64,000 bases of DNA from Cliona cf. orientalis (Eukaryota; Porifera; Demospongiae; Clionaida; Clionaidae). Within the stretch, counting starts at the first letter, position 1, and the number at the start of each line of letters is the position of its first letter. Below are positions 1 through 44,745 of the stretch, in pieces. The notes under the pieces were generated by a model that did no database searches, was not told where the DNA came from, and saw nothing but the letters and a program-made list of their open reading frames with translations. The stretch covers positions 6,820,001 through 6,884,000 of the forward strand of contig OZ005707.1 in the NCBI GenBank assembly GCA_963930775.1. The letters run 5' to 3'. A program made the position numbers and the translations under genes.

Positions 1-3000
1 GAGACTCGGTGTACCCATCGATGAGAGTATAAAAGAGCAGATTTGGTGCTTCAGACTCAATGAAGGTGATCGCTGAGTAGTTAATGCTCGATACATTCAC
101 ACTCTCAGAGAATTCCAGAGTCAGTATGAGGCTATTCATATCGAGGTCAAAATATTCCAAGGTTGGGCTGGATACGTCTTTGGTGTAAGTTTCCACTTGG
201 ATTGGATCACTGGCAGTGATATTGACAACCATATTATCAGACATATCTGAGATGGCAAATGGCTCAACGATTAGGAAGGTGTCATTTTCATTGGTAGCTA
301 GCTCAGTGAGCACTTTGATTTCATTAAAATCCTCTCTGGTGAGCTGTATCTCAATCACTGGATCGTCAAGTGATTCGGTAAAACTGGAGCTGAGTTGGTA
401 GATCTGGTTTGTGGGTTGGTCTCCGCCAGCTAGCACAATTCCACTCACGTTCAGAGATGAACTATTGACAGTTTCAGAGAAGTACAAAGTGAGAATTCTG
501 GCATCGAGATCCAGGTCAAATGCATCGAGCGTGGGTGGAATGTCATCCGGTGTGAACGTGCTCACCTGCTGGGCCATGGACTGCTCAATCTCAACGATAT
601 CATTGCCGAAAACATCCTCCAGTAAGTCAAATGTGAGTCTGATGTAAGTGCTGTTCTCGTCCACAGCCAGCTCAGTTAGTCGCTTGATTTCGTTCAGATC
701 ATCCAAACCTAGCACAATTTCAATGATGTGGGAAGATGGACTGTTGAGATAGCTGGAGTTGGTGAGAGTGTAGTGGCTAAATGTGTTATTTCCTTCAACA
801 GTGTCCTGCAGTGTGATGGAGGAGATATTGAACTGAGATACATCAACAGTCTCAGAGAAACTAAGCGTTAAGATTTCTCTGGTCAGATCGATATCAAAAG
901 CATCGAGGACGGGAGGGGTCGTGTCTGGGGTATAGTTTGACACCAATAGAGCATTGATTCCATTGAGAACTGCCACTACTCCTTGATCACTCATATCAAG
1001 AATCGAATCTTCATCCAGCACCAACCAAGTGGTGTTTGGTGATAGAGCGATACGCCTTCTTTTAAGTTCGTTCAGGTCATCAAGAGTGATTTCAATCGAG
1101 GCCACGAGTCCATCTTCAAACATAGTCAGCATTCCTCCCATTAGCATATACTGGTTCATTTCTAGAGACACATTTGGGGCCCTCTGCAGTATGATACCAT
1201 CAAACATTGTGGTAGAAACATCCACTGTCTCTGGGAAACTCAAGATGAGCACGCCTGTGTCCATGTCGAGGTCAAAGCTAAGGACGATTGGTGGAGTGGT
1301 GTCATTAACATACGCTGAGGTCTGCAGAGCCTCAAATGGTTCAATCTCTGAGGCTTGATTTCCATTCATATCCTCAATGGCCAAAGGAGTGATGGAGAGG
1401 AAGGAAGTGAAACGGCTCGTAAATAGGATCTCGTCTCGTTTGATGGCGTTCAGATCATCGTCAGTGATGATTATTGTGATCTGGAGTCCATTTGAGCTGT
1501 TGGTGGAACCATCAGTGAGAGTGTAGAAGGTGATGGGTATATCTGTGAGGACTGTGCCATCCATTCCATCTCCACTTGCACTACCGCTGCCACTCATAGT
1601 AATATTGGAATCCACTGCCGTTCTATTTATCAGACTGTAGTTGCCCGAGGCCTCTACAGGAACTTGGGTTGAGTACAGAGTGAATGCAGTGTAGTCAATA
1701 CTACTAGCATTGACAGGTTCGTCAAAGTTAAGCACAAGCAGGCCCAAGTTCATATCAATGCTGAAAGAGACGAGCTCTGGACTGACAAGGTCTTCAACAT
1801 ATTCACCCACAGGAATAGTGTCCTCCTGCACATAGTTCACTGCTATAGCCATATCGTGTACAGCTGCAGACAGTATCTGGACGTATGTATCGTTTTCGGA
1901 AGTAGCCAGCTCTGTGTCGAGTTTGATTTCATGAAGATCATCTAGAGCCAGTAGTACTGTAATGATGGTGGAATTATCCATTGAAATTGCTCTGTAGTCT
2001 CTGAGGATGTGGTAAGTGGCTGTAGAGAAATTACCATCAGATTGGACAATAATATGACTAACATTGAAGCTATCGACATTCACAGTTTCATCAAACGTTA
2101 GTACTAGAAGTTCACTGGTGAGATCCAGTGTAAAAGAGAGAAGTACGGGGCCAGTAGTGTCCTCCACAAAGCTATCGGCAGCCAGAGATTCATTGGGGTA
2201 GAGAGGTTGCACAGGCAGTCCCACCATGTCATCAACAGCATCCTCAGTGATGGATATATACGTGCTGTTCGGGGCATTAGCAAGCTCATATATGGCCTTG
2301 ATTGCATTCAAGTCTGTGCTACCAATATACACAGTGATTATAGGGTCATCCGTGCTATTGGAGTAGGAGTAGAGTGGGGGGACACCGTCAAATAAAGTGT
2401 AGCTCTCGTTTGAGAGGAAAGAGTCCTGTGACTGAAGAGAAATGGCTGAGATATTGAGTGTTGTTGCATTCACTGTTTCAGAGAAGGATAGAATCAGTAC
2501 ACCAGTGTTCACGTCAAGACTGAAAGAGACCAAGGCGGGTCGAATCTGGTCTTGAATGAAGTTGGAAACTTGAAGTGCACTGTTTGAGGGAATCTGTACC
2601 ACTGCATTTTCATTCATATCATCGATAGCTGAGGAATTGATGGATAAGTAGGTATTGTTCCCTGATGTAGCAACCTCCGTTAGTCGCTTCAAATTGTTCA
2701 AATCGAACAGTCCAATGTCTACAATGATGTAGGTATTGTTGGGAGAAATGGATGAGCTACTCTCTGGAGTCAGTTGAAGAGTGAAGAGAGGACCTGAAGA
2801 TTCCTCAGCATGCTGTATGGTAATAGACTCCACATTTAGTGACTCCCTATTCACTGTCTCATTGAATCTAAGCACCAGCTCACTGGAGTTCAGATTGAGG
2901 TCAAACTCCTCAAGCTGTGGTGGATTGCGGTCAGCTACAAATACAGAAACTCCAAGAGCATCCTCTTCTGATATATTAACCACAGGATTCTCATTCATAT

Positions 3001-6000
3001 CATCAACAAGGGATGACGTAATGGTGATGTAAGTGCTGAAAGCATCCACGGCAAGAGTAAACTGTCTCTTGATCTCATTCAAGTCTGCTGGTGCCACCTG
3101 GACAATGATGATTGAGGAATCATTCGATTCAGTGAAGCTGGAGTTAGACAGCGTATGAGAAATTACTGAACTATTGCTAGAGTCTTGTAGAGTTATCTGA
3201 GTCACATCAAATGAATCAGACTCCACAGTTTCTGAGAAGAGAAGAGTTAGGACTCCCGTGTTTACATCTAGATTGAATGTTTGCAGGAGAGGAGGAACCA
3301 GATCTTCAACGAATACATCCACGGGTATTGCTAGAGAGAGCTCAACTGCTACCAATCCATTGCCACTCATATCAAAAACAGCACCAGCTCCAGCTGCTAG
3401 ATAGGTATTGTTCTCACTCGTGGCTAAGTACACAAGACGCTTGATGTTGTTCAAATCAGCAGTAGTCAATTCAACATCGAGTATGTGATAGTCACTAGGC
3501 TGAGAGAAACCTCCTGTCAGAGCATGACTCTGCAAAGAATCAACCAAACTGCTGTTAGAGAGGAAAGTGTAGAGGGAAATATCGTGAGTGATGGCTCGTA
3601 CAGTCTCAGAGAATGACAAGGTGAGAATCTCAGAAGAGAGATTGAGACTAAAGGACCTGAGCTCTGGTCTGATCACATCTCTGGTGAAGTTGAAAGCCTG
3701 TAGTGCACTGATAGGGAACACAGGAGTAAGAGCATTGCCGTTCATATCTTTAATGGCCAGGTCCGTGGCAGTGATATAAGTATCGTTGACAAAAGTAGCT
3801 ACTGAGGTGAGACGCTTGATTTCATTGAGATCATTCAAACCGAGAAATATGGTGACAACAGTGGAGTCATCGAGGGAATGAGTGCTGTCAGATAATTGTC
3901 TGAAGTCTGCACGTATCTCATCTCCCTGGATAGCAAACTCTGGTATGACCAGCGAAGAAGCATTGACAGTCTCATCAAAGGTGAGCACTACCTCCTCCAA
4001 TGTCAGATCAATGCTGAAGGAGACCAACTGAGGAGATGTCAGATCCTCGTAGAACCTCAGTGCTTGCTGGGCTGTGTCATTTTCAATAGACTCTACACTA
4101 TTTCCATTCATGTCCATAATCAGCCTCGAACTGAAAGCGATGAACGTATCATTTTCACTCGTTCCTAAATCACGTAACTCCTTGATCACATTGAGATTTT
4201 CCGTGGTGATATACACTGTGATAACCGTTGAGTCTTGCATAGAGGCAATGCCACCAGTCAGCTGCACAAATGAATCCCCAACTTCAGAAATGTTGAATGA
4301 GTTCAAAAGAATAATTTCTTCTTCCACAATGGTGTTGGCACGAACTGTTTCATCAAATGTTAGAGTGAGAGTTCCAAGATTCATGTTGAGTTCAAAGTCA
4401 ACCAGGAACGGTGCTGTTGTGTCCTCCGTGAAGTTGGATGCAAGAATGGCTTCGTGAGAGGTCGTTGGGATGATATTTCTTCCATAGTTGTCATCAAATC
4501 CTTCTCCCCTTAGTGAGACATAGACATTCCCCAGCATCGTTCCAAGGTTGTCATTCAGCTTGATGCGGTTGAGGTCTTCAGTAGAAATATTCACCGTTAT
4601 GAAATATCCATTCTCACTCTCAGTGAAGCTGGACAGACTCAGAGTGACAAAATCACTGTCAACAACCCGGGAGTTTTGAACAGTCAGGGCTCTTGGATAG
4701 AATGTCGACGCATTAATTATGTCATTGAATGTCAAATGAAGCAGTCCTTGGTCCATGTCAAGCGTTAGATCAATGAGCATGGCTGGAGTATCATCCTCGA
4801 TAAAGTCTGAAGCACGTATGGCCACATTCAGAGGTACAGCAACTAAGTCATTTCCATTCATGTCTTGGATTGTTCCTTCGATCACACTCAGCCATGTGTC
4901 TGCCTCACTAGTAGCTAGGTCATCAGAGAGCTTCAAGTAACGGATGTCAGGCTGGACTAGATACCCAGAGAGGATCATAGTGCCATTCATGTCAGTGTCT
5001 TCTGTATTCTCTCCTCCCGTCAGATTTCTGAGGTCTGTTGGAGTGAAAGAAGGCTCTGATAGTAGTGTTAATCCAGTATACATCACACTGGATACACGGA
5101 CTGGTTCATTGAAAGTCAATGTTATGACATCATCGACTAGATTGATGGAGAAAGAGATTACCATTGGAGGCACTCGGTCTGAAACTAGGGTACCAGGAGT
5201 AATAGGCAAAGCAGAGGGAGTATCGATAGCTATGACTTGGTTTGGATTTCGACGAACAGCGTCTGCAATCAAGTTCTCAGTGATTGATATATAGGTGTTG
5301 AAATCAGTGGTCCCAATGTCATCCAGCGCTCTGATTCGGTTCGTATCGACAGGAAGGAGGTCTACAACAATTACTAGTCCATCACTGCTGCTGGTGCTTC
5401 CCCCAGTGAGTTGGATCATAATGGCATCGTCAGATCGACCATTGAGGAAAGTGATAGCAGAGGCGTCCAGAGTTGAGGCCGAGACTGTCTCACTGAATGT
5501 GAGTATAGCTGTGTTGTTGTTAAGATTGAGCTCAAATGCCAGTAGAGTGGGCCTACCGACATCGTCGATGAACGTGGCAGCATCCCTTGCATCTGTTGGA
5601 GGTACTACGATTGCAACGTTTTCTGCCATGTCCCTGGCAAATCCTTCACTCAGAGATATCCAGCAGTTGTTAAGATCCGAGCACAGACCTCTCTGTCTCT
5701 GTATCTCAAACCAGTCTTCATCGGTCAGTATGATGGTCACATTAGTACTATCCTGAGGGATGACAGTCCCACCCATCAGCGTGTAAGACATCTGAGGATT
5801 TCTATAGAACGACTGCAGTGTAAGCTTAGTGACGTCCACAGTAGCAGCGTTGATTGTCTCATTGAATGTAAGAGTGACAGTTCTGCTGTCCAGGTTGAAA
5901 AGTGTGAATTCCACGAGAGCAGGTGCATTTGTATCGATGATGTAATCTGTTGATGAGAACCCACAGTCCTCGAAGGTGGTAGGATCGATGGGGATGTTAT

Positions 6001-9000
6001 TCTGATCTCTCAGCGGTTCACCAGCCAAAGAGAGGCAGCAATCTTGACCACTGTTGTTAAAGAAACACAACGGAAGCCTCTTGATCTCGTTGAGATCTTG
6101 AGGAGTGAGCGTGCAAGTGAAGGTAGTCCTCAATACATCAACGCACTCTCCTCCGGTCAACGAATAGCTGTATGCTGGTATATTGCAAACTGGCTCTGGA
6201 GCTACGACCAGCCCACTTCCTCCACTCATCATCATGGCACTCCCGCTACCACTGCTGATCATGCTCCTAGCCCCACTGCCATCACCACTCAAAATGACCA
6301 TCCCACTACCACTTCCTGCAGGCTGTAGGCCACTACCACTCACTGCTGGTAATACAGTGTTGTCTACACTGCTACCACTACCTGCGATCGCAGGACTGCC
6401 TATGCCACTCCCACCACTGCCACCACTGGAGTCAAATTCACAGTTATAGCAGCAGTCCTGGACGATGATATCCATCGGTCTGAGAGTGGAGATGTTGACA
6501 GCTTCGGTGAAGTTGAGACGAAGCACACCACTGTCGAGGTCAACAACGAAGGAGATTAGTTCAGGAGCAACCATATCTGCTCTAAAGCCACCTTCTCTCA
6601 CTTGCAGCGCTTGCCCATCCTCAATGCTAATGATGTCATTACCATTCATGTCATCAACTAAATTAGATGTGTGTACAATGAAGGTGTTTTCACGCGTAGT
6701 AGCCACTTGCTCTAGTTGCTTGAGGGTGTTCAGATCTGCAAAAGACAATCGAAGCTCGATCTCAGTAGAGTCACGGAACTCCCAAGAGCCTCCAGTGAGG
6801 GTGTAGCGATCAAGAGACCCTGCAAATCGATCAGCTTGGACCGTTAAATCTCGTGGAGAGAAGGTAGATGCACGTACTGTCTCTGAGAAAGTCAGGGTGA
6901 GATTTCCATTGGTGATATCCAGTGAGAATGCAACAATCTGAGGTCTAGTTGTATCCGGAGTGAATGACCTCGTTCTCTGAGCAGACATATCAGGAATAGC
7001 CACTACTTGGTTACCATTCATATCTACAATGGTCGACTCTGAGAGAGTCAAGAAAGTGTTGAATGAAGAAGTAGCTATTGAAGTAATCCTCTTGATATTA
7101 TTCAAATCCTCAGCAGAGAGCTCAACAACGATGGTGGTTGTATTACTGCTTGAAGTATAGCTGGACAAAAGCTGGTACTGGACAGAAGCTGTTGTATTGT
7201 CTTGCAAACTGATTTGGGTGACATCTAAACTCTCCGAGTTCACAGTTTCATTAAAAGTCAGAATAAGTTGTCCTGAGCCATCCAGATCCAGGCTGTACCC
7301 AGCAAGGCGAGGTCTGAGGATATCTTCATAGAAAAATCTGACTTGGAGAGCCTCTTCAATAGGTATTGGTTCAACAAGCAGCCCTGACATGTCTGCTAGA
7401 GCTGCACGTGTGATACTGATATAGGTGTTATTAGCATCTGTAGCCAAGTCAAATAGCTGCTTGATCCTATTCACGTCAGGTGTTAGAAGTGTAACCTCTA
7501 CAACTGCAGAATCCAGAGAGCGTATTGACCCACCAGTCAGCCTATATGAACTCTGAGCAACTCCAGTCAAAGATGGACCATCTACCAGAGTAAATTCTGT
7601 CAAGTCAAAGGTAGATAAATCAACCGTCTCTGAGAAATAGAATATTAAGACCTCAGTGTTTAGATCGAAATCAAAGAAGTCTAGCTCAGGTGATATTTCA
7701 TCTGGAGCGACTAGTGCAGCTTGTAAGCCCCTTGTTGAAGGAATAGTGACCACCCTATTGCCCACCATGTCTGATATGAACTGTGGGGGGTAGCTGATGA
7801 AAGTATTACCAATGTCTGTACCAAGTTCAGGACGCTGCTTGATAGCATTAAGATCATCTATGCTCAAATTTATGATGAATTCTGGTCCATTGACATTGAA
7901 TGACACACTTGAGCTAGTCAGAGAGTAGAAGTTGAAGCTGTCGACGTCCCGATTGATTCTCAAGCTGTTTTGAAGTGTGAGTTCAATCTGATTTAGTGTA
8001 TCTTCCACGTTAACTGTCTCAGTGAAACTAAAACTGATCTCCCCAGAGGTGAGATTGAGAGAGTAACTTACCAATCGTGGAGAAGTAGTGTCTGGTGTGT
8101 AGTCACGGACAGCAACGGCATTTAGTCCATTGATGTGTTCTTCAACCAACTGCATGTTCATATCAGCGATGAGAGTACTTGGAAAAACTAGCCAAGTTGT
8201 AGCTTTTTCATTGGCAATGGTTCTAGCCTTGATTTCATTCAGATCATCATTTGTGATTTGTATATATACTCTGGTATCGTCAATATCTGATAGAAGACTG
8301 CCACCAGTCAATGAGTAATTGTATCTCTCAACCATTACACTAGAGAAGCGCTGAAGAGTGATGTCGGTGAACTGAAGTGAGGAGACATTCACAGTCTCTG
8401 AAAAAGTCAGAACAAGCTGACCATTGTCCATGTCCAGACCGTAGCTCTCAAGCACGGGCATAGTGGTATCATTCCTGAACATATTAGCTTGTCTTGCATT
8501 TCCATCCTCTATGACAGCAATGGAATTCCCAGCCATGTCTCGGATGAAAAACTCATCAATCCTCAGATAAGCCGTGTCGATGCTTGTGTAGAGCATATCA
8601 CTTCTCTTTAGCTCATTCAAGTCGTCTTCAGTCAGCTGCACAAGAATAGAGAGGCCATCAGTGCTGGGGGAGAATCCACCAGTCAGTCGCAGCTGCTGTT
8701 GCATGTGTGTGAACTGTTCATCAGCTTGGAGCACAAGACCGGTGGGGTCAAAGGTGGACCTATCTACAGGTTCATCAAAGTTTAGAACGATGGTACCAGC
8801 ATTGATGTCAACTGCAAATGAGGTGAGCTGGGGGGAGGTTGTATCAAAGCCGTACACATCAGCCAGCTGAGTGAACTCCATGCTTGGATTTGCTGACAGT
8901 GCATTATCGTAGAAGGCTCCTAGTCTGATAGTGAGGTAGGTGTTATTTGGATTGCTGGCTAGGTCTCGACGAAGCTTTATCTCATGAAGGTCTGTATCGG

Positions 9001-12000
9001 TGAGTTGAATAGTGAGAATTGGGCCATCAATTTCTGTGATGCTCTCTACACCAGTCAGTGTATAAGTTGTTATGGTGACCACATCAGCCCCTAGGTCCTG
9101 TCCCATTCCAGATCCAGACCCACTTCCACTTCCGCTTCCAGCTGAAATTCGCATTCCAGAGAAAACTCCAGAACCAGATCCGCTGGTTACATCTGGAACA
9201 TCTGACTGCAAGATCAGGAATGAAATATTGAGAGTACTAATGTCCACAGTTTCATCAAACGTGAGAATAAGCAACTCGGATGTCAGATTGAGAGTATATG
9301 AGAGAAGTACAGGACCTACTACGTCAGGAAAATATGTATCAACTTGCAAAGTCATTCCATTGGGACGAGCAATGATGTTATTTTGAGACATATCCCTCAC
9401 AAATGTTTCAGGGAACTGAATGTATGTGGTGTTTCGGTTTTGTGCCAGCTGTACGATTCTCTTAATGGCGTTGAGATCTTCGGACCCAATGGTGATGAGA
9501 ATGGTGTGAGAATCGGCCAAAGGGGTGGAGCTAAGCAAAGGGCCCGCCCCCATGTTGAGAGTGTAGGAGTAGTTGCTGTCTTGGACAAACTCTTCAGGCT
9601 GTAGGGTGATTTCGCTAATATTGAGGCTGAGTATATCGATAGTTTCTGAAAAATTCAGCAGTAGTGTGCCAGTATTGAGGTCCAGCTCATAGGCAAGCAG
9701 CTCTGGTCTGATACTATCATCAGTGAATACACTGACCTGTGAAGCATTAGACATAGGGATCTCACTTACTAAGTTATCATTCATATCCACCACAGCATCT
9801 GGTGTTAGAGAGATAAACGAAGTAGCATCATCGACAGCCAATCCCCGGATTCTCTTCAGCTCATTAAGATCATCCAATCCTATGATAATCTCCACGATAT
9901 CATCATTAGAAGTGTTGGTGAAACTGCTTTGAGGCGAAAAGGTGAAGGTTCGATTCTCTCCAGTGACATTTGCAGCATACTGCAGTGTGATTTGACTCAC
10001 ATCGAGTGAAGACGTGTTCACAGTTTCTGAAAAGAAGAGTGTTAGTATTTCCGAGGTTAGGTTGAGTTCAAAAGCCAATAGTTCAGGTGGAGTTATATCT
10101 TCAGTATACACACTGACAGGTAGAGCCTCACAGAAGCCATTTTCAGAGGAGCAAAGCCGAGCAGATACATTGTTGGAATTCATGTCATCAACGAGTTCCA
10201 AGGAGAAAGAGATGAAGGTAGTTACGTTGCTAATGGCAAGCTCTGTCAGTCGTTTGATTTCATTGCTGTCCTCCAGTGTCAGATTGATCGTAACAAATGT
10301 TGAATTCTCCATCGAAAAATTTCCACCTGAGAGACTCAGTGCTGTGAAAATAGGTAGAGAAGCATTGCTATGGCTGACCAGGGTGACCTCTTCAACAATA
10401 AATGTTGTAATATCAATCGTCTCAGAGAATGTTAAGAAGAGTTGGCTGGTGTCAAGATCAAGATCAAATGAGGCAAGTGTGGGATCAGTCGTATCTGGAG
10501 TGAAGACTGTAACCTTCAGAGGATCAGAGGCAACAATTCCTACTACCTCATTCATCACCACATCCAGTATTCCACCTTGCTCCAGCACTAGATATGTAGT
10601 ATTTGGGGAGGTTGCTACGTTATAGAGCCTCCTTATCTCATCTGAGTCTTGTTTCGTAAAAATTAAGTCGATGATGAACGAATCAAACTCACTTGAATTA
10701 CCTCCTGTGAGTGTGTACACACCAAACTCATCCGTGCTGTTGGGAGCACTAATGAGAGTGATGGAGGTATAATCAATAGAACTGGCATTGACAGTCTCTG
10801 TGAATGTTAGTGATAGCAGATCAGCATCCATGTCTAAGTCAAATGAGTCTAGCTCAGGATCAGTAATGTCTTCAATGAATGTATCAACTTGTAGAGCAAA
10901 GCTTGTGTTTCTCTCGATGATCTGGTTGGAGTTCATATCACGGACGAGATCAGGAGTGAAAGAGAGATAGGAATTGTTCACCGAGGTGGCAATCTCTAAA
11001 ATTCTCTTAATCTCATCCAGGTCCTCCCTTGTGATCCAGATATAGATTACCAATGCATCATCCATGGAGTGGTTCCCTCCAGTCAGAGTGTGACCAATGG
11101 TTGAATTCATGGCTGATTGGATCCTAAGCTGCGTCACGTCAAGGGTAGAAGCATCCATGGTTTCAGGGAAATAGAGGGTTATGTTGCCACCATCCATGTT
11201 TAGATCCCAAGAGACTAGGTACGGTCGAGTAGTGTCAGAAATGAAGACAGCTGCTCTCTTGGCATCAGTGGTAGGTATGGGAACTATGCTGTTTCTGTTC
11301 ATATCTAGCAAAATGGTGTCTGGGAAGGTGATATACGTTGTGTTTTGTGATATAGCTAGGCCATAGATTCGCTTGATCTCATCAAAGTCTTCATTGGAGA
11401 AGGTGACGTTGATGGTTGTTGCATCGATATTCTCCGTGTGTGAGCCTCCGGTGAGAGTAAAGTGAAGTACGGATGGATCATACTCATAGCCTATAACAAC
11501 CTCCCTCTCTGTGACTGTGTCATTCATTCCTGAGCCCGAGCCAGTGGTAGCATTATCAAATGAGTCATTACCCACTGGCACAAGCTGAGTGATTTCCAAT
11601 AGTGTGGTATTCATCACATTCTGGAAGGTGACTTGAGTTCTGTTAAATGTATTTGCCTTCACTGTCTCATTGAAGGTCAAGAATAGCACACCAATATCCA
11701 TATCCAGGGTATAGGTGACCAAATATGGTGGATTTGTGTCCTCTGTGAACATTCTCACTTGCAAAGCCCGTTCCTCTCCTGGATTAACGAATGGACCAGG
11801 AATTGACAAGATATTCAGACCTCTCTCATCTGAGATAAAGAACTCCGTATGAGTGATGAAAGTCTTATTTTCATTCACTGCTAGTCCCTCGTTCCTCTTT
11901 ATCTCATTCAAATCATCAAAAGAGAACTGCAGCACTGTGAAGTAGTCATCAGGAGTGTCAGTAGATCCTCCAGTGAGACTGTACCTGTTGCTAGTCAGTG

Positions 12001-24000: not shown

Positions 24001-27000
24001 TTCCATTGGCAGCGAGGGACAAGGCATCCAATCTCTTGATCTCATTCAGGTCCAAATCAGAAATCTGGATGAATATTGTTGTATTGTCCCCATAGAGCGA
24101 GTAGCCACCAGTGAGAGTGTATGAACCATTTGGTGAAGGATTACTAGCATCATCCTGGAGGGTGATGTATGTGATATTTAGTGAGCTGGCTCTCACAGTC
24201 TCGGAGAATGTGACAGAGAGAATACCAGTGTTCAGATCGAGGTCAAACGATACGAATTCCGGTGGTACATCATCAGCATCGAACATAGAAACCCCAAGAA
24301 TGGCCTCTTCGATGAAATTGAAGTTCATATCTTGGATTGTTGCATTTCTCAAGATGATGAATGTGTTATTTTCTGACGTCAGTATCTCATCAAAGAAACG
24401 GATCTGGTCAGAGTCCTGCTTGTTAAAGACAATGTCCAAGAACCTTGTATCATCGTAAGTTTGATTGCCTCCCGTTAGTTGATAGAAAACCGTCTGATTG
24501 GCTGAGTCATTGCTATTGGTGAAAAGAATGAATGTTATCATCAGAGACTCGGGACGGATGGTTTCAGAGAAGGTGAGGAAGACAGTATCTATGTTCAAGT
24601 TTACATCAAAGGAAACAAGTTCTGGAGGAATTGTGTCCTCAGTGAAGTTGGTGACTTGCAACGCCTCAAACTGCTCAATGATAGAGATTGGATTATCAGT
24701 CATATCCATGATCAGGGACTCAGTAACGGTGACAAAGGTAGAATCCTCTGAAATGGCCAACTCCCTTCTACTCTTAATTTCATTGAGATCATCAAAGTCA
24801 AGCTGAAGATAGACTATGGTGGAGTCATTGAGAGAATTCTCACCAGCTGTGAGGGTGTAGCTCATGGAGAGCATAGCACTGCGGTCAGAGACCAGTGTTA
24901 TTCCACTGGCAACAAAGGAGCTTGCATTGACTGTCTCATCAAAAGTGAGAGAGAGAATTTCGGACGTTAGGTTGAGATTGAATGATACCAACGTCGGTCT
25001 TGTTTGATCTGGCATGAAACCAGTCACATTCAGTGCAGCTTCTTCATCAATTTCCACCACAGCATTCATATTCAGGTCCACTATCGTCTCATTGTCAAAT
25101 GCAATGTACGTATCGAGGACAGAAGTAGCCAGACCTGGAGTCAGTCGCTTTAGCTCATTGAAATCTTCAATGGAGAAGTACACTAATAAGGTAGTGGAGT
25201 CTTCTTGAGTGGAGTTACCTCCCGTGAGTCTGTATGTGAACTCTGTTTCACTATAGTTGGCTGTGCTTCCTAAGATCAAGTTGGTAATGTTCAATGTTCT
25301 TGCTCTCACCGTTTCATTGAACACCAGAGTCAGAAATCCAGCATTCATATCGATATCAAAGTGGTCGAGATGTGGTCTGGATGTATCGGGAGTGTACTCT
25401 GAAGCCTGGAGCCCAATAACAACCTCTGTCAGTGGATTTCTTGAGGTGTCAGAAATCGGATGAAAAGGAGTGTCCTCTGTTGTTAGGAAAGTGTTATTGA
25501 TATCTGTTGCAAGCTCAAGGTTGTTCTTAATGGCATTCAGATCATCTTGAGAGAGAATGACTCGAATGTCATAGCCATTGGGTGAGTCAGTGATAGTCTC
25601 AGAAGTGAGTGTGTAAGAAGTGGTGATATTATCTGGACCTTCAGCACTCTGGATGACTATTCCTGTAGCTCGGAAAGTACCAGTCAAGACTGTGTCATCA
25701 AAAGTCAAGTAGAGTATTCCAGTATCCATGTCTAGGCTGAAGCTTACAAGATCAACAGCGTCATCATCTGTGGTATATCGGTCAACTCGCATTGCAGCAG
25801 TTGCTGGAACTCCAATGACATCGTTCCCAAACATATCTTGAAAAGTGCCATTCTCTATAGAGAGCCAAGTGTTGGATGCCCTATCAGCTAAATTGAAGTC
25901 GAGCTGTATCACAAATAGGTCCTCATCGGTCAGTGTTATGTGTACCCTGGTCTTCAGAGCAGCATCAGGTTGGTCATACGTCACCGTGCCATTGGTCAGA
26001 GTGAAATTAGAAGTACCGGGATCGTTGATGTTGGCAGCGGACTGTAGAGTGACCAAAGTTGGTTCAACTGATGGCAGATAGATGGGCTCGTTGGAAATCA
26101 GAGTGATTGTCTTTTCCTGAAGGTTGAACTCAAACGCAGCGAGCATTGGAGAGGTGATGTCAGGAAGAAAAGATGATGCTTGTAGCCTTTCAGAAGGACC
26201 CCTCACTGCTGCGTCATTGTCACTAACATCTTCAATCAACATGATGGTGTTCTCAAGCCATGTGGAGTTCTCAGAGGTGAGAAGCATCTCGCGATATTTA
26301 ATTTCATTCTGGTCGGCCTCTGTGAGGTAGAACTGAACATATATCCAGTTGAAGGTTGTATCAGAACCATCATGGCCAGACAAAGTGAAAAATTCAGTAT
26401 CATTTACTTCTGCATCAAAGAAAGTGATCCCACGTGCATCCAAGTCAAGATATGCTATCGTTTCATCAAAGGTGAGGGTCACATTCCCATTATCCATGTC
26501 GAGTTCATAAGCTACTAAGATGGGTGGAACCACATCGGGACGGAATGTAGTTGCAAATTCAAAAGGCTCAGTGACCTGATCGTCTTCAACAGGAGCAGCT
26601 AAATTCCCCGCCATATCTCTTAGGAGGTCCATTGTATACCGAAAAAAGCAGCTACGATCAGTGATACACAAGACTCTCATCTGCTTGATTCGATTAAGGT
26701 CATAGACGAGAGGGGTGAACTCAACAGTGATATCATCAATCTCAGTGATATTTGTGCCACCAGTAAGGTTCCAAAATTCAAATGGTAGGCCGCTAACTAG
26801 AGTATCGTTGTAGGTCCATCGCTGCAGTGTGATCTGTGCTGGGTCGAATGTGCTAACATTGACAGTCTCATTGAATTCAACACGAATCTTATTGAATTCC
26901 AAATCGATGAGAATGAAATCCATGAGGTAGGGGCGGTTGCGATCTGGTGTGAAGAACCTCGCTTGTCTTGCATCAAAAGTACTCACTGGCTCCACTTGGT

Positions 27001-30000
27001 TTCCATTCATGTCCTCTACAGTGTATTCTGGAAAGACTATGAAACAATCATCTCTCCTGTTAGCTTCTGTGCACAAGTCAAGACGCTTGATTCGATTCAG
27101 ATCCTCAAATGAAAGCTTCAGTATGAATACTTGGTCATCCCACTCTCCAACTGTACCTCCGGTGAGAGTGTAGTTGAGCACAGCATTAGTACGATTCCTC
27201 ACAACCTCCAGGGTGACTCTGCCATTGAGAAAAGTCTCATTGACAAGTGTAGGAACAAGCTCATTGGGTATCTCCTGAACAGAGAAGAGGGTGATATTGA
27301 GAGTACTGCGGTTCAGTGTTTCATCAAATGTCAGAATAATCTCTCCAGCATCCATGTCTATATCAAAAGCATGGAGATACGGAGGAGTGGTGTCTTCTGT
27401 GAAGTTAGCTACCTGCTCAGCAAATCCGTTAGTGATGGGGACAATTGCATTTCCGTTCATATCCACCAGAAGCTCCCTAGTGAAGGAGATGAATGTATCA
27501 TTCACAGAGGTAGCAATCAATGTGAGATTCTTGATCTGATTAAGATCATCAGGATCATTAGATAGATCTCGGAGAATTTCAATCACAATAACTGTAATAT
27601 TCTCTTCAGTAGAGTTGCCTCCTGTTAGAGTGAAGAACTCCTCACCTGTGTCAGCCTGTGGAGCACCTTGGATTGTGAGCTGAGATGAATCAAAGGAGAA
27701 AGCATTCACTGTCTCACTGAATGTCATTGTGATTGTGCCTGTGTTCATATTCAGCTCCCAGCTAACTAGCTCTGGTGGCGTGGTATCTTCAGTGTGGTTA
27801 GTTACAGGGATGGCTGCACCGTTAGGCACAGCAATGACACGGTTCCCATTCATATCCTCAACCAGATCTTCTGTAATGGAGATATAGGAATCAGTGTTAT
27901 CACCTCCACCGATAACCAAGCTAGTGTTCTGCTTCAGAAAGTCCAGGTCATCCTTAGTGATGTTGACTACGATGACTGAACTATTCACAGTTTCTGTGAA
28001 GCCACCAGTGAGAGTTAGGAGATCATCAGCTGTCTCACCATCTTGGAGAGTAATCGCCAAGGCATTGATGGTCAAACTATTCACCGTCTCAGAGAAGAAG
28101 AGAGTGAGAGTTGAGCTGTCTAAGTCAAGATTGAATGTATTCAATTCTGGGCGAACCAAGTCTTCAAAATAGTCTGTGACCATTGTTGCATTCTGTCTAG
28201 GCACTGTAGTTACTCTATTGCCGTTCATATCATAGATGGTATCATTCGTCAGGGATAGGTAGGTATCTCCTTCATACGTGGCAAGAGTAAGGAGCTGTTT
28301 TATGACATTCAAGTCATCATTTAGAAGAGAAATAACCACTACCGGGTCATCACCATAGACAGTGCTACCTCCAGTTAGTGTATAAGAGGCACCTGCTCCA
28401 TCTCCTCTCTCCTGGATGGTGATCCAAGATGCATCAAGGGTGCTAACATTGACAGTCTCAGAGAAAGTTAGCGTCAGTTGATCACTTGTTAAGTTCAGAT
28501 TGAATCCTTCCAGCACTGGTGGTGTCATGTCATCAGTGAAGAAGGTGACAGGAAGAGCTTCTTCGGGTGAAACTTCAAAATTGTAATTCCTCCTCATATC
28601 AGTTACGGTCATATTGGTGATGCTGATGTAAGTTGTGCCTCGAGAAACTGCCAGAGCTCCAATTCGTTTGATGTTGTTCAAATCTTCTTGGTCCAAGAAA
28701 ACAGTGACGTTCTCTAGGTCAAAGTCCAGTACCATACTCGTCGATATCAGAGTATAGAAAGCAGCTCTGGAGTCATTGGCAGAATTGTAGAAGGTAATCT
28801 GCGTTGGATCAAGGGTCTGAGTTTGTACGGTCTCGTTAAAGAAGAGAAACAGCATTTCAGATGTGAGATCAAGGTCAAACATCTCCAAGATAGGACCAGT
28901 TGTGTCTGAGACATAGTTTGCCCTGCGAATTGGTCTAACACTTACAGCATTCTCTAGGGGCACAATGAAGTTGCCTTCAATGTCAGCAATGGTTATCATG
29001 TCCAGAGTGAGCCACGTCGTGCGCACATTTCGAGCAATTCTTAATCTCTTTATCTCATTGAGATCAGTCCTAGATAGAGATATCTGTATAACCGGGCCAT
29101 CTTCAGAGTGAACTGTTCCAGATGTGAGCATGTACCACACGCCACCAGCTTCAGAGACATTGGCTTGGTTTTGTAGCACTATGCCAAAGAAATTCAGTGA
29201 AGAGACATCGACTGTTTCTGAGAAGGACAGAGTGAGATTTCCTGAGTCCATGTCAAGCCAATAATCTCTCAGGCGAGGGGAAGCTGTATCATTCGAGAAA
29301 CGGTAAGCTTGTCTAGCGTCCTGTTGAGTGATTTCCTGAACAGCATTGCCATTCATGTCCATTACTAGGCTGGAGTTAATGCTCAAAAATGAGCTATCTA
29401 GATCTCTGAGTAGCTCTGACATCTGTTTTATGACATTGAGATCGGCCTCAGTGATTTGCACCACAATCTGTAGCCCATCTTCACTAATGGAGTCTCCTCC
29501 TGTCAGAGTGAAGCTCTCATATGTGACATTTGAGGGATCTGACATATTGAAGGTGATATCCTCGACAGACTGCAGTGTGATGGCTGTGAAGATAAATGAA
29601 TCCCTTTCCACCGCCTCATTGAAGTTCAAAATGAGCTGAGACTCATCAAAAATAACATTCCACAAGACTAGAGATGGCCGAGTGGTGTCCTCTGTAAAAT
29701 TCTCAGCAGTGATGGACTCCATTGGAATGGAGTTTGGAGGAACAGCCATGTCCTGAAAAGTATTCGGTTCCAAAGTTAGGACTGTATTGTTGATATCTGT
29801 GGCAATATTGCGCTCCAATTTGATGTTGTTGAGGTCATGATCGCTCAGAAAGATGGTCACAATTGGTGAATTTTCAGCAGATATTTCGGCATCAGTGAGT
29901 TGGTATGTACTGTTACTGTCACCAATTATGTCCTGCAGTATCACTGATTCCACTCGGAAACTATCAACGTTCACTGTCTCAGAGAACGTCAGAGTTAATT

Positions 30001-33000
30001 CACCAGCATCAACATCCAACACGAACGAAAGTAGCCTTGGTCTGGTAGTATCTCTAACAAAATCATCCTCTTGGACTGCCAAGGCAGAAGACTCATTGAT
30101 ACTAGTAACAAGATTTCCAAACATATCCATAACTGTGAATTCAGTTAGGCTAATGAAGGTATCATTTTGTGAGAGACCCAGTGTAGTAATCTGCTTTATA
30201 GCATTCTGATCATCATCAGTTAGTTGGATAATGATTAAAGGGCCATCCTCACTGAGTACCGTTCCATTGGTGAGAGTGTAGAAGTCGCCTGCAGTTATAT
30301 TAGCATCACTCTGTAGTGTAATCTGTGTTGGGTCTATAGAGCTGGCATTGACTGTTTCACTGAAGTTGAGAATAAGCTGTCCCCGGTTTGCATCAAAGCT
30401 AAATGACTCCAGGTAAGGTTGAATTTCATCCGTTGTAAAATCATCAGCTGGTATAGCATCTTCAGAACTGACAGCAGCAACTCTGTTTCCATCTACATCT
30501 TTAACTGTATTCCTGCTGATAGCTACAAAGGTGTTGTTTCGTGAAGTTGCAAGATCAGGAAATCTCTTCAATGCATTGGAGTCATTGACACTGAGGAATA
30601 CTGTAACAACAGTTGAATCTTCTACAGAAGTCAATCCCATGGTTAACTGAACAGAAGTAGCATTATCATTTCTCTCGCTAAGAATGGTGATTCCTGAAAC
30701 TTCAAATGATGAAGCATCGACTGTCTCGGAAAATGTTAGGACCAGCTCAGATGTGTTCAGATTGAGATCAAATCCGATCAGATTTGGTGGTGTTTGATCT
30801 CTGATATACTCTGATGCAGTGATGGCCTCAGATGGTGCAATTTCTTCAACAAGGTTATCATTCATATCTTCAATCAAGAAGTCATCAATTCTAATCATGG
30901 TAGTATCCCGATTTGCTGCTAGGTTCAAGAGGAACTTGATTGTATCTCTATCAAAATCTGAGATTTGTATATCAATTACAGGTGCATTGGCGTCACCAAT
31001 AACCGAGGCATTAGTGAGTCGATACTCTTGGTAGTTCTCAGTCGAATTTTGGAACACGATAGCAGTTGCATTAAAGGTGGATACACGAACTGTTTCTGAA
31101 AAGCTTAGAGTGAGAGTTCCTTGATTTGCATCAAAGACAAATGCCACAAGCGCAGGCTGAGTGAAATCAGGATAAAACTCATCAGCATCCACAGGCAGTG
31201 GGATTGATGGTAGGATCGGCTGAAGTGGGTTGTTATCAATATCACTAACAGTTGCAGCTGTGGCAGAGATGAATAGATTAGAAGGATCCGTGGCAAAATC
31301 CTCATTCAACTTAATCATGTTGAGTTCTTCTGTTGGCAGAATTAGCTGCAGTACGGGCCCATCGGTCGAATAGGTTGTGGCTCCCGTGAGAACAGTGGCA
31401 TTAGCTCCCACTGAGTTGCTATACAGAGTGATTTCAGAAGCATCCAAGCTAGTAGCCCTCACGGTCTCGGAAAAGTACAGTGTCAGTACATCAGTTGTCA
31501 GATTCAGACCAAACCGCAGCAGTTCAGGTCTCACAGTATCATCGATGAATGAGTCTGCTGGCATTGCTTCAATATCAGTGATCCGAGTGACAGGATTTCC
31601 ACTGACATCAAGAACAGCATCTTCTCCTAAAACCAGGAAGGTTGTGTCTGCATTGCTGGCAATATCTGTCAGTTGCTTTAAAGCATTCAGATCCTCCAAT
31701 GAAATGTCTATTCTAATCTGAGGTGAGTTTATCAGCTGTGCTCGTGAGTTTGTCAGTGAGTACTGACTCCCAGCTCGAAAGATTCTGTCCCCTTGAAAGG
31801 TGATCTGTGAGACATCTAGAGAAGATCCATTGACAGTCTCAGAAAATGAAAGCACAATTTGACCTTCATTCAAATTGAACGAATATGCCAGGAGTTCAGG
31901 AGGAGTCTCATCTTCAAACACTTCACCAGCTTGTAGCGGTTCAGAATCTGTGTCATTGATTTCATTTCCAGCAAAATCAATAATGGCTCCTGGATTTACC
32001 ATAAGGAAGGTGTTTGATAGTTCAGTGCCTAGGTCAGTCAGCTGCTTCAGTAGATTCAAGTCTTCCAAAGTAAGGTCGATTCTCACTTGAGTCAGGGAGA
32101 TGATTTCAAATGGAGTAGAGGCATTGAGCATTAGAAATTCTTCCACGATTGAATCATTGGTTGTGTTAGTACTGTCCTGTAGCTGCAGATCCTCAAGCAT
32201 AAACGTGTCAAACTGAACTGCTTCTGAAAATGTCAACTGCAGGCTTCCCATATTCAGATCCAAGGTGTAGTTCGTTATCACAGGGGCAGTCTCATCAAAT
32301 GTATAATTGGCAACTTGTATAGCTTTGCCATTTGTAATAGCTAGAATATCTTCACTGAAAACATCTTCAATAGCTGAAGCCTGAATGGTAAGGTAGGTAT
32401 CACTTGTATTTGTGGCTAAGTCTAGGTTAGCTTTGATAGCATTCAAGTCATTGTCCCCAATCTGTATTAGAATAGAAAAGCCATCAGGACTCAAGCTTGT
32501 GCTGTCCTCTGTGAGCTGATATCGTGAGTTATCACTAGAATACGGAGAATTCTGCAGCACAAGTCCACGTGGATCAAAAGAACTGCTTCTTACGACATCA
32601 TTGAAAGAGAGGGTGAGCTCACCGCTATCGAGATCTAAGAAGAATGACTCCAGTTCAAGAACACTTATATCCTGAGTAATATCTGTAGCTCCTAGGCCAC
32701 CCACTGGCATATTGGGTTCTCCAAATGTATTGAATACTGTCTCATTGGCTAGAAAGATAAAGGTGTTGTCATCATTAGTTGCAAGAGTACGTGAAGCTTT
32801 GAGGGCAGTGGCATCTTCCTGGGTAAGTTGGATGATGACATCCATGAGACCTTCAAATTGTCCTTCGAAGTTAAAAATGGTGCCACCGGTAAGAGTATAT
32901 ACCTCATCTCCAGCACCAGGCATGGAGGAATTACTGAAAGAGATCCCAGAAAAGTTGAAATTTGGTAGCACTGGCTCATTGAACATCAGAATGAGCTGAT

Positions 33001-36000
33001 TTGTGGTGTAATCTATAGTGAAAGAGAATAGGACAGGTCCATCACTGTCACCAGTGAAATTTCTCACAGGAAGAGCGTCTTCAGGTGAAATCTCAACGAC
33101 ATCATTAGAATAAAATGCCACATCTGTGAGGGCGGCTGGAAAGACAGTGATAAAGGTGGTGTTAGAGTCAACGAAGAATCTTGATGACTTCAAATCTTCA
33201 ACATTTCTAGCTGACAAGTGCAGTAAGAGAGTTCTTGTGTTGAGGAACGTCACGTTCTGTGGCTCTGTCAGAGGAAAGGTGTCAATATCAGTTTCGTTTG
33301 ATATGTTCTGGACACCTTGAAGAACGATTCGTTCATACTGAACTGACTCTAGGTCAATAGGCTCACTAAATTCAAGTGTGAGGGTGCCAATGGCAAGGTC
33401 CAGATCGAAGTTTAGCAACTCAGGAGGGATTGTATCCCTCAAGTATTCCACTACTAAGAATCCAGGGAAGGTGTCTTCCACAGTGATAGCTGCATTGTTG
33501 TTCATATCTTCAACTAGATCTGCAGTGAAGGAAATATAGCAGTTTCCTCGGTACGTGCACACCATAGAGCTAAGCTTGAGGGTATCTAGATCTGCCTGAC
33601 TCAGAGAAATCTCCAGCAGTGATGTGTTGAGTGGTGGAACTTGTCCTCCTGTGAGAGAGATTGTGGCCATTGGTTGAAAGAACAGACTCTGGAATGTGAT
33701 TTCTGATAGATTCAGTGTTGCTACGTTTAGAGTTTCAGAAAACTGCAGTATGACTAGCTCACAATTGAAGTCCAGCTGAGCAAAATCTACTATCTGTGGG
33801 CCAGTTGTGTCCTCAATGAATTCTTCTGGTGGTCTGGCAATATCTAGAGGTATGGCAACAACAAGCAAACCCACCATATCGCAAACCAGATCTTGTGTAA
33901 AGGAAAGATAACAGTCATCTGAGCCAGTACAGAATGGTAGCCTCTTCAACTCATTGAGATCATCCAAGCTAAATGAGATGTTTACGATATGACTGATGTC
34001 TCTATTGCTGAATGCACTGGTTAGGGTCAAATTGAAAGTAAAGTTTCCAGGCTCATCCACTAGAGTAATGTGCTCAGCATTGAGGGCGGTTTCACGCACC
34101 GTTTCATCAAACGTGAGCAATAGTACACCAAGGTTGAGGTCTATGGTGAAATTGAGGAGCTGAGGTCTGATAGAGTCGGCAGTATATTCCAACACACGGA
34201 AAGCATCATTGGGGAATACATCAATCAGCTCATTGCCTGCCATATCTCTCAATGCTTCTCTGTCCACAGCAAGATACGAGTCAGATTCAGAAGTCAAGAG
34301 TCCATCAATGGCTTTGATTGCATTGCTGTCCTCCTCCGAGAGTTGGAGAACTAGCTCTGTTGAATCGTTGGAAATTACTCGACTGTTCCTCAGCGTGTAG
34401 AAGAGGCTGGCAGAGCTGATACTGTTCTGAAATGTGAACATAGTGACATCAACTGAGCTGGCATTAATGGTCTCTGTGAATGTAAAAGAGAGTGTTTCAG
34501 CTGTGAGGTTGACGTTAAACTGCAGCAACATTGGCCCAGTCATATCTCTGATGTAGACAGCCGCTCTTTGTGCGTTGTCTTCCGGAATCAGAACAGCTTC
34601 ATTTAGCGAAATATCCAGCACAACTCCTCTCTCCATGGACAAGAATGTCGTCGCACGTGAGATAGCCAGCTGTGTCAGTCGAGTGATCTCGTTAAAATCG
34701 TCTTCCACAAGTTCAAATACAAGAAGGCTACCATCATCGATAGTTGTTATGTTGCTATCATTAGTCAGTGTTATAAAGGATCCAGCAGTGGCATTGAAGC
34801 CCACTTCACGACCACTGTGCAGGGAGACAAAGGAATAGTTGAAGGTCATAGGTCGGACTGGTTCACTAAACTGCAATAGCAGCACCCCCAAGTCTAAATC
34901 GAGAGTATACGAGAGCAGTACTGGTGGATTGAGGTCTGCAAATGAGCCATTAATATTCTGTGCATTGTTGAGGTCTATTGGAACAATTGGATTTGCTGAC
35001 ATATCGTATACACTGAGCATAGCCACAGAAATGAATGAGGACTCGGGAAGTGTTAGCAGCATGGTGGAGTCAAGCTGCCTGATGTTTTCAAGATCTTCAG
35101 TAGTTACATTGATAATAATGACTGTCGAGTCCAGGGTAGATACCTCACCGCCTGTTAGAGTATACGTCTGGGTGTCCAAGGTAACATTGTCCGTGTTACT
35201 GAAAGTGAAACCAATTGGCTGAACAGAACTAGCATTGACTGTTTCAGAGAATACCAACTCCAACATCAAATCATAGGTACCAGGTTCCAGGTAGAGATTG
35301 AATGCAATCAGCTCTGGGGGTACAAAATCTTCAGTGAATTCGGTCACTTGCCGTGCCTCATCCGCTGGTACTGCTAGCAGCGGATTCCCATTCATGTCCA
35401 GAACAGCGTCAAAGTTAACAGAGAGGAAAGTGGTAGCATTGGATATGGCAAGGGTGGTGTCACGTTTGATGAGATTCAAGTCATCTCCCAAGACTGAGAT
35501 GACAATGATATGACTATTCTCTTGCGATGAAACTGAGGCTGTGGTCAGTTGATAGTAGCCATCACCCGAGGTATTGGTGTTATTCATAGCCTGTATGGCA
35601 AACTCGGTGACATCAAGTGATGAAGCATTCACAGTTTCTGTGAACGTTATGCTGAGCTCACCAGAACTGAGATTGAAGTTGAACGACTGTAGCTCAGGAT
35701 TACGAAAATCGGCATAAAAGTCAGTCACATTCAATGCATCAGGTGGAGCTATTCTTTCCACAGGATTTCCACTGGTATCAGTAATGGCCTGAGGCTCTAT
35801 TGCTAGATAAGAATCATCTTCTGATGTGGCCAGGCGAAGTCTCTTTATCTCATTGGCATCTCGAGTGGATAGCTGTACAAAGATATCCGTAGAATCGATC
35901 AGTGGTGTTACATAACTATCGAATAGTGTGTACATTACTCCACCGTTTTGAGCATCATACAGTGTCACAGCACTCTGCACAAAGCTGGTAGCACTCACTG

Positions 36001-43150: not shown

Positions 43151-43610
43151 TGCGCTCAGTTCGTAATCCTAGAGTTATTGCACGTACAAACATTATGATG
43201 CAGTACATGTCACTATTATCATAATAATATGATCTATCTTATGAAACAATTATCAATTTAATATCCCTCAATTATCACTTAATCATAAAGTGTTAATTGT
43301 CATACATTATATATAGCAGCAGTACATGTAATAGTATTTCATTAGCATATCAGACCTAACTACGATTGAAATCTGAGAAGCTTACTATTTCGAGGATGTG
43401 TAGTACTATAGCTGGGGCAACAATTTCATCAAGCCATCATGATGAGATTGTTATGGAGTACATGGTTCATACTGTAACGGATTACCATTATAATATTATT
43501 AGGAATGGTCACCATAAACACATGTAGAGACGTTATTCCATAACAAATTAGCATTCATCAATTGTCAGCCCTTAAACATTCCGATTTGTGTACGTCTTGT
43601 CTGTTGTCTA
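43151..43610. promoter_or_regulatory. AT-rich upstream region of the minus gene
   Basis: This gene-free stretch lies directly upstream of the minus-gene ATG and should hold its 5' untranslated region and promoter. It has an in-frame TAG at 43169-43171 and many TAATAT/ATTAT runs. I can see no convincing TATA box, initiator or splice acceptor. Two divergent starts 1.9 kb apart make a shared regulatory region likely, which is inference. Confidence 0.4.
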
Positions 43611-43613
43611 TTA

Positions 43614-43906
43614 TGCACCTATCAATGTAATGCCCCACTACCCCCCTCCCGGGCACCATAAGGGCTAGGTGGGGATTTGACTAATGAACTCGTCAACTTC
43701 CCGTAAGGTGGGGCCAGCCTCATCTGTCAAATCCCCACTCTATCCCCCTTCCAGGGTGGGGAAATGATAGGGGATTTGACAAATATCGAATACATACTTG
43801 TCAAATGCCCCTGTCTGGGGCTTGGTTTTCTATGTCAATCCCCCTGTGTTGCCCCCTATAGCGCCCGGGAGGGGGGTAGTGGGGCATTATATTATTGATA
43901 GGTGCA
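43614..43906. mobile_element. MITE, 293 bp, with about 40 bp terminal inverted repeats and TTA target duplication
   Basis: The left end begins TGCACCTATCAAT and continues with TAATGCCCCACTACC, a C-rich run and GGGC. The right end is the same in reverse complement, apart from a small length difference after ATCAAT. TTA lies directly outside both ends (43611-43613 and 43907-43909). The interior has no ORF but carries inverted and direct copies of GTCAAATCCCC (43671-43681, 43736-43746, 43780-43790, with a variant at 43800-43811). A 3-bp TTA duplication is typical of PIF/Harbinger-type elements; that family assignment is inference. Confidence 0.8.
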
Positions 43907-43909
43907 TTA

Positions 43910-44716: not shown

Positions 44717-44745
44717 ATGAAAGAGAACCTCTCTCCCCGCCAAAA

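What the first reader, a model, noticed from the sequence alone, without database searches (positions are those of the whole stretch)
1..34180. Exact 18-domain super-repeat in the minus gene
Counting D-L-N-x-I-K motifs from the window edge, cysteine-domain pairs fall at domains 16/15, 34/33, 52/51, 70/69 and 88/87: exactly 18 apart four times. Independent markers keep the same step: T-T-W-L-type domains with an N-G-x-N-A-like end (domains 3, 21, 39, 57, 75; about 1.0, 8.2, 15.3, 22.1 and 29.0 kb), S-x-N-G-L-Q-I-type domains just before them (4, 22, 40, 58, 76), and the third domain after each pair. The gene therefore grew by tandem duplication of an 18-domain block of about 6.9 kb, after which the domains diverged in sequence.
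Basis: seen in the sequence. Interest (0 to 1): 0.9.

Follow-up and report, generated by a model that had tools for sequence, protein, structure and literature searches.

The report
Giant sponge proteins with frozen super-repeats
Two neighbouring sponge genes encode enormous chain-like, secreted-looking proteins whose domains follow a strict higher-order rhythm of 18 in one and 23 in the other; the 23-domain rhythm is shared with a single-celled relative of animals, which makes them good candidates for the unidentified filaments of the feeding flagellum.

Summary
The 18-step is real. The minus ORF is one stop-free exon of 127 tandem ~125-residue Ig-like domains (16,232 aa). Same-phase domains are more alike than others (0 of 2000 shuffles reach it), also without the marker phases; in a domain tree i and i+18k pair far more often than neighbours. 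The register covers domains 25 to about 112 (five blocks), not the first 24 or last ~13.

The divergent plus gene is more striking: one 125-kb stop-free exon, 41,694 aa, 334 domains, with a 23-domain unit (11+12) kept without a slip. Dysidea, Ephydatia, Amphimedon and Corticium carry colinear orthologues, domain for domain where covered. The choanoflagellate Salpingoeca rosetta has the same 23-unit in the same phase. So the blocks are older than the sponges compared, the 23-unit older than animals.

The window domains reach no Pfam cut-off in four pieces scanned; the fold is a β-sandwich nearest S-layer protein SbsC. Best mechanistic guess (unproven): secreted glycoprotein filaments, most likely of the flagellar vane, with the super-repeat setting node spacing, as titin's super-repeats do on myosin.

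The parts
1..43150 (-). Minus giant gene, part in the window (residues 1-14383 of 16,232); runs on to a stop codon just below C19:6814455, about 5.5 kb left of the window
   Evidence: stop-free frame; C-terminal orthologues end at the same place
43043..43150 (-). Hydrophobic N-terminal stretch that looks like a signal peptide; similar stretches start P0001, P0002, P0050, P0051, P0134
   Evidence: read directly; no predictor run
34187..43027 (-). Domains 1-24, outside the 18 register
27404..34186 (-). 18-domain block 1 (domains 25-42)
20414..27403 (-). 18-domain block 2 (domains 43-60)
13706..20413 (-). 18-domain block 3 (domains 61-78)
6587..13705 (-). 18-domain block 4 (domains 79-96)
1..6586 (-). 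Block 5, part in the window (domains 97 to part of 113); register fades after about domain 112
33470..34186 (-). Cys-Cys domain pair 25/26
26567..27403 (-). Cys-Cys domain pair 43/44
19679..20413 (-). Cys-Cys domain pair 61/62
12962..13705 (-). Cys-Cys domain pair 79/80
5558..6586 (-). Cys domain pair 97/98; domain 97 carries a long insertion with 10 Cys
   Evidence: Cys-rich also in orthologues P0122 and P0067
46541..64000 (+). Plus giant gene, part in the window (about 46 of 334 domains); stop-free to C19:6991622; 23-domain super-repeat
50636..52165 (+). Plus domains 11-14, holding the Cys-Cys pair 12/13
54767..56263 (+). Plus domains 22-25, holding the Cys-Cys pair 23/24
59318..60838 (+). 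Plus domains 34-37, holding the Cys-Cys pair 35/36
43151..46540 (.). About 3.4 kb between the two divergent ORFs; a splice-acceptor-like TTTTGATTAG stands just before the plus ORF, so a short upstream exon is likely; not found

Best explanation
Shown by sequence: a head-to-head pair of giant genes encodes chains of one beta-sandwich domain (127 and 334 copies) rich in N-glycosylation sequons, the minus one with a signal-like start. The domains have position identities arranged in super-repeats of 18 (minus) and 23 = 11+12 (plus). Following from trees and orthologues: the super-repeat comes from duplication of whole blocks before the compared sponges separated, and the 23-unit was present in the common ancestor of a choanoflagellate and sponges; since then domain order hardly changed in the stretches compared, while sequence drifted (37-60% identity per domain, about 80% in the two nearest relatives). 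Inferred: each protein is an extracellular filament about 0.5 um (minus) or 1.3 um (plus) long, and the super-repeat is a ruler. In the plus protein paired disulphide-loop domains recur every 11/12 domains (about 44-48 nm at ~4 nm per domain) and mark nodes where filaments cross-link or bind a partner, as titin's 11-domain super-repeat sets a ~44 nm spacing. The most likely structure is the flagellar vane of choanoflagellates and sponge choanocytes, whose component is unknown.
For: Register and tree. Plus Cys-Cys domains: 55 of 56 fall on phases 11, 12, 0 and 22; pair 11/12 in 14 of 14 blocks, pair 22/0 at 13 of 14 places (missing at domains 322/323). Of 26 relatives aligned as domain strings, 19 match minus or plus clearly with no slip inside the aligned stretch, among them Dysidea avara 51/51 and 60/60, Amphimedon 39/39, Corticium 47/47 and 51/51; three more (P0128, P0053, P0084) show 2, 1 and 2 extra query domains. 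E. muelleri gene numbers agree with the same head-to-head pair. S. rosetta P0116: self period 23 (0 of 1000) and rotation 7 on the sponge phases (0 of 1000), also without the Cys columns and without the Cys-phase domains (0 of 2000 each); 6 of its 7 Cys-Cys domains fall on sponge Cys phases. Fold: pLDDT 96.6; four-domain model 90.8. Sequons 435 against 226 expected (minus) and 797 against 592 (plus). Vane: S. rosetta vane filaments ~3.5 nm thick, branching ~80 nm from the membrane, sheets ~45 nm apart, component unknown, no MST1 homologue found by the authors (PMC9671500, sections 8 and 12 read). Sponge choanocytes also bear vanes, 0.7 um wide in a flow model (PMC7755389 passages). Titin 3.98 nm per domain (PMC7427331 passages).
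Against: Nothing here shows expression, localisation or a filament. The vane link rests on shared taxa and rough dimensions, which other collar-cell structures would also fit. PMC9671500 reports that external proteinase K did not remove the S. rosetta vane (data not shown there), which its authors take to favour carbohydrate or glycoprotein. The S. rosetta gene model has only 37 domains found and ends inside one. Rise per domain was not measured; 23 x 3.98 = 92 nm is not 80 nm. Two periods (18 and 23) would need two node spacings. Only 13 of 180 homologues carry an organism name, so absence from other animals is not established. No signal peptide was found for the plus gene.
Confidence: 0.4

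Rival explanations
1. Same filament protein, other place: the mesh between collar microvilli, the gasket (Sollas' membrane) linking collars, or general sponge matrix or cell-cell adhesion.
For: Signal-like N-terminus of minus, high sequon count, domain array filling the exon to the stop. PMC7755389 passages name a collar mesh, vane and gasket as extracellular elements of the pump.
Against: A gasket or multicellular matrix does not explain the same 23-unit in S. rosetta; a collar mesh could.
Confidence: 0.4
2. Neutral fossil: blocks of 18 or 23 domains were duplicated early by unequal exchange; once the domains diverged exchange stopped, so the register persisted without any function of its own.
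For: Blocks are nearly equidistant (plus 0.28-0.36, minus 0.348-0.387), as after an early burst, though identities this low saturate. Domains at ~32% identity no longer recombine easily (inference).
Against: One Cys pair persists in 14 of 14 plus blocks, the other at 13 of 14 places, and both in S. rosetta. Hardly a domain lost or gained in long orthologous stretches. S. rosetta's own copies are far more alike (0.54 at step 23), so 23-blocks were copied again or homogenised there, with the same unit.
Confidence: 0.35
3. Convergent periodicity: no block duplication; selection by a periodic partner made domains at equal phase resemble each other.
For: Same-phase excess is small (0.366 vs 0.318).
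Against: The excess is spread over the domain and over non-marker phases, and specific stretches pair in order (70, 71, 74 with 120, 121, 124 at step 50; 11 pairs at step 36), which is the mark of copied segments.
Confidence: 0.05
4. Assembly or translation artefact: the long frames are not genes.
For: No transcript was available here.
Against: Stop-free frames of 16,238 and 41,699 codons; independent colinear sequences at 36-80% identity in other records.
Confidence: 0.01

Closest known systems
Titin / connectin A-band super-repeats (7- and 11-domain)
   Same: Giant chain of small beta-sandwich domains with domain-level super-repeats that keep register over many blocks; ~4 nm per domain (PMC7427331, passages seen)
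   Different: Here one domain type, extracellular-looking, single huge exons, 18 and 23-domain units; titin is intracellular, Ig/Fn3, many exons (recall)
Big_5/CopC-like bacterial Ig-like domains, S-layer protein SbsC
   Different: 13% identity to SbsC; window pieces stay under Pfam's cut-offs; no 18/23 super-repeat known there (recall)
Bacterial giant extracellular filament proteins such as GhpA of Aureispira
   Same: Top Foldseek hits of the four-domain model are GhpA fragments
   Different: TM-scores 0.12-0.16: only beads-on-a-string likeness, no kinship claimed
Mastigoneme protein MST1 of Chlamydomonas
   Same: Extracellular flagellar filament (functional analogy only)
   Different: PMC9671500 reports no MST1 homologue in S. 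rosetta; not compared here by sequence

Membership tests
Pfam Big_5 (PF13205) domain | Window pieces score above Pfam's gathering cut-off | tested here: not met
   Four pieces scanned, best Big_5 score 18.6 against 23.6; 3 of 82 single domains reach E <= 0.01, best 0.0002, scores not shown
Pfam Big_5 (PF13205) domain | Relatives carry the label | tested here: met
   Precomputed PF13205 in 10 of 49 and 2 of 69 hits, S. rosetta P0116 included; other hits bear PF18564, PF04234 or PF01833. So a distant kinship with Big_5-like domains is likely
NCBIfam families | Score above curated cut-off | tested here: inconclusive
   Two unrelated families, 1 of 82 domains each, best E 0.0027; cut-offs not shown for them
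Ig-like beta-sandwich fold | Two-sheet beta-sandwich of ~7 strands in a confident model with solved matches | tested here: met
Titin family | Ig/Fn3 domains with sequence kinship to titin | tested here: inconclusive
   One domain: titin Fn3 at Foldseek E ~0.04. Four domains: titin A84-A86 E 2.6e-6 but TM 0.12-0.17. Profile search of PDB sequences: 3 hits, no titin
Titin-like super-repeat (works like) | Exact domain-level higher-order period over many blocks | tested here: met
   18: z 10.4; 23: z 44
Flagellar vane component | Located in vane filaments | not testable with these tools
   No expression or localisation data
Flagellar vane component | Present in vane-bearing lineages (choanoflagellates and sponges) | tested here: met
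   S. rosetta P0116 and four named sponge genera
Flagellar vane component | Absent from animals without vanes | tested here: inconclusive
   The 13 organism-named hits of 180 are sponges or S. rosetta; the search is limited by length and exact words, and its candidates were capped

The most novel reading that the evidence does not exclude
These are the unidentified filament proteins of the flagellar vane: a glycoprotein ruler older than animals, kept almost domain for domain since the ancestor of sponges, with 11/12-domain spaced disulphide nodes that set the mesh; and in this sponge perhaps the largest animal protein read from one exon.
Probability: 0.3. Interest if true: 0.95.

Novelty: new variant of a known kind. 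Interest (0 to 1): 0.85.

Why it matters
Domain super-repeats kept in register are known from titin, where they measure out a filament. Here is another, probably extracellular case, in longer units, with the 23-unit kept since before animals arose and shared by organisms with collar cells on both sides of the animal origin. It gives a concrete, taggable gene (S. rosetta PTSG_06209) for testing what the flagellar vane is made of, an open question in the origin of animal feeding cells. The 41,694-residue frame in one 125-kb exon exceeds titin (about 35,000 residues, recalled) though not the algal PKZILLA-1 (about 45,000, recalled), and asks how such an mRNA and protein are made.

Tried and rejected
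Single-domain walking or neighbour duplication as growth mode: rejected; 1 of 40 (minus) and 1 of 119 (plus) sister pairs are neighbours, while 16 of 40 and 42 of 119 are whole multiples of 18 and 23. The minus tree is an IQ-TREE quick tree, the plus tree FastTree; many branches are weak at 130 columns, and 24 of 40 minus and 77 of 119 plus sister pairs do not follow the period.

18 across the whole gene: rejected for domains 1-24 and ~115-127. Same test within relatives: a self-period of 18 is seen in P0122 (0 of 1000), weakly in P0067 (7 of 1000) and P0050 (28 of 1000), not in P0051 (733 of 1000) or P0134 (592 of 1000); the last two cover domains 1-51 and 1-39, largely the off-register part. 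Among 69 giant relatives the top step was 23 in 29, 18 in 7 (z only 1.6-2.9 in P0050, P0052, P0067, P0071), neither in 33.

Was the choanoflagellate match only the Cys pairs? No: it stands without those columns and phases. P0115-P0118 resemble each other in layout and are not four independent cases. P0063, P0116, P0115 and P0117 match the phases but no single place in the sponge arrays.

Orthology by plain BLAST is not clean in each case: for P0067 (Corticium), P0122 and P0054 the highest-scoring BLAST match to minus is a block-shifted one at 32-34%, and the colinear one (36-49%) comes in shorter pieces, interrupted at the Cys-rich domain 97; the domain-string alignment prefers the colinear placing. 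E. muelleri P0024 has no clear orthologous place (27-29%).

Can 18 be derived from 23? The phase matrix has a diagonal 6-12 with 11-17 and a second 6-10 with 22-3, so the units share a segment and the 23-unit looks like a half-duplication; an exact derivation was not worked out.

Alignment A1 of domain triples slid by whole domains (702 columns for 380 residues) and was not used. The own-genome search for further family members did not complete. Bacterial genomes were not scanned (one search failed). Coordinates of the structure models were not available to me, so rise per domain was not measured (one search lists the files). Literature: searches list no title or abstract start describing this protein family; the library is open-access PMC only. 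I read sections 8 and 12 and passages of PMC9671500, and passages of PMC7427331 and PMC7755389; the rest are search listings.
Full report
WHAT IS THERE. The window lies in a 216.8-Mb genome that is searched as a eukaryote's (G000:C19:6820001-6884000). Two stop-free frames diverge from a 3.4-kb gap. The minus frame is C19:6814455-6863168 (16,238 codons), the plus frame C19:6866526-6991622 (41,699 codons, 125 kb). Both consist almost end to end of one ~125-residue domain: 127 copies in minus, 334 in plus, by an HMM built from 120 seed domains drawn from 159 candidates. The organism is a sponge by its relatives: the named orthologues are Dysidea, Ephydatia and Amphimedon (41-49% identity per domain) and Corticium (39%). 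That the first three are demosponges and Corticium a homoscleromorph is recalled.

THE OBSERVATION. Period 18 is the best of 2-59 with z 10.4. Restricted to domains 25-112 z is 17.1, and without the marker phases 11.5, each 0 of 2000 shuffles. The signal is small in size (0.366 same-phase, 0.318 other-phase identity) but spread widely. The register holds from domain 25 to about 112 and fails on both sides.

THE BIGGER PATTERN. The plus gene has a 23-domain super-repeat, z 44, 0 of 2000. In 40 of 40 overlapping stretches of 16 domains (domains 1-328) the best register is the same one, so no slip was seen. Cys-Cys domains fall on phases 11, 12, 0 and 22 in 55 of 56 cases, so pairs recur at steps of 11 and 12; the last expected pair, 322/323, is missing. 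Off-diagonal phase likeness (0 with 12, 3 with 15, 2 with 14, 11 with 22) suggests that the 23-unit is itself an old half-duplication. The 18-unit shares a segment with it, minus phases 6-12 with plus 11-17.

AGE. I aligned 26 relatives as strings of domains. Colinear stretches without any inner slip, 19 of 26: minus P0050 63 domains, Dysidea 51 and 60, P0052 50, P0054 56, P0061 48, Corticium 47, P0074 44, Amphimedon 39, Ephydatia C-terminus 10; plus P0119 60, P0056 65, P0059 60, P0060 53, Corticium 51, P0110 49 (weak, 0.367), Ephydatia 31, 28 and 13. P0119 and P0110 have one further HMM hit before domain 1. Three relatives show one or two extra query domains, which may be split HMM hits (P0128, P0053, P0084). 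Four do not align to one place (P0063, P0116, P0115, P0117; identity 0.29-0.31). Coverage is incomplete: Dysidea spans minus domains 1-51 and 68-127, P0052 spans 21-70, Corticium only 81-127; for plus, domains 175-269 are not covered and Corticium spans 284-334. Orthologous domains average 0.37-0.79 (Corticium 0.39), block copies within the gene 0.366 (minus) and 0.311 (plus). Therefore the blocks were copied before the compared demosponges separated and, for the two last blocks of each gene, before Corticium's line separated; the array has hardly changed its domain count since.

CHOANOFLAGELLATE. S. rosetta PTSG_06209 (P0116, 5584 aa, 37 domains found) repeats at 23 with 0.54 identity. Its domains match sponge plus phases best at one rotation, 7; this stands after removing the Cys columns and also the Cys-phase domains (0 of 2000 each). 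Its Cys pairs (5/6, 16/17, 28/29) then fall on the sponge Cys phases; one further Cys-Cys domain (11) falls on phase 17, which is not a sponge Cys phase.

FOLD AND FAMILY. Four window pieces reached no Pfam cut-off; single domains gave weak Big_5 hits in 3 of 82, and some relatives, S. rosetta's among them, bear a Big_5 label, so distant kinship with Big_5-like domains is likely. A model of one domain from 82 window domains has pLDDT 96.6 and is nearest SbsC of a bacterial S-layer. A four-domain stretch around the Cys pair has pLDDT 90.8, pTM 0.74. Lysine and cysteine are rare (0.8-0.9% and 0.3-0.4%) and N-x-S/T sequons exceed expectation from composition.

HOW IT MAY WORK. Shown are the array, the registers and their age. 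Inferred is a secreted filament of ~0.5 or ~1.3 um at titin's 3.98 nm per domain (PMC7427331 passages), in plus with nodes every 11/12 domains (~44-48 nm), and a full unit of ~72 (18) or ~92 nm (23). PMC9671500 describes S. rosetta vane filaments ~3.5 nm thick, branching ~80 nm from the membrane in two sheets ~45 nm apart, of unknown component. The coincidence of taxa, thickness and spacing makes the vane the leading single candidate, but it is unproven; other collar-cell meshes fit nearly as well.

NOVELTY. Super-repeats are known from titin, so this is a new variant of a known kind. I found no paper on this family in the searches listed under Tried and rejected.

Noticed in passing
window 46541-64000 and on to C19:6991622: Plus gene: single stop-free exon of 125 kb, 41,694 aa, 334 domains, exact 23-domain super-repeat
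   Followed up: yes
C19:6994217-6995383 (locus L023): Decayed, frame-broken partial copy of the 3' end of the plus gene about 4 kb downstream, with matching 3' flank (6992077 and 6996055), so probably a recent tandem duplication of the tail
   Followed up: partly
window 5975-6586: Domain 97 of minus carries a long Cys-rich insertion (10 Cys in a protein with 47); the same domain is Cys-rich in Dysidea P0122 and Corticium P0067
   Followed up: partly
Ephydatia muelleri EMCRGX_G018692, 693, 694, 704, 705: Published gene models split the two giants into fragments; gene numbers agree with the same head-to-head pair, so existing annotation misses the genes
   Followed up: partly
P0084, P0068, P0149: P0084 (plus orthologue) has a strong 4-domain step (0.449) and P0068 a 5/22-domain step (0.43), i.e. 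recent local copying in some lineages; other relatives such as Dysidea P0149 carry TIG and Calx-beta labels
   Followed up: no
C19:6807281-6811669 and 7002810-7013735: Neighbours: a DLK-like kinase, a topoisomerase-II-like gene and a KLF-like zinc finger (names from recall of the sequences)
   Followed up: no
C19:6720001-6726773: Retroelement-like long frames on the minus strand (recall of the look of the ends only)
   Followed up: no
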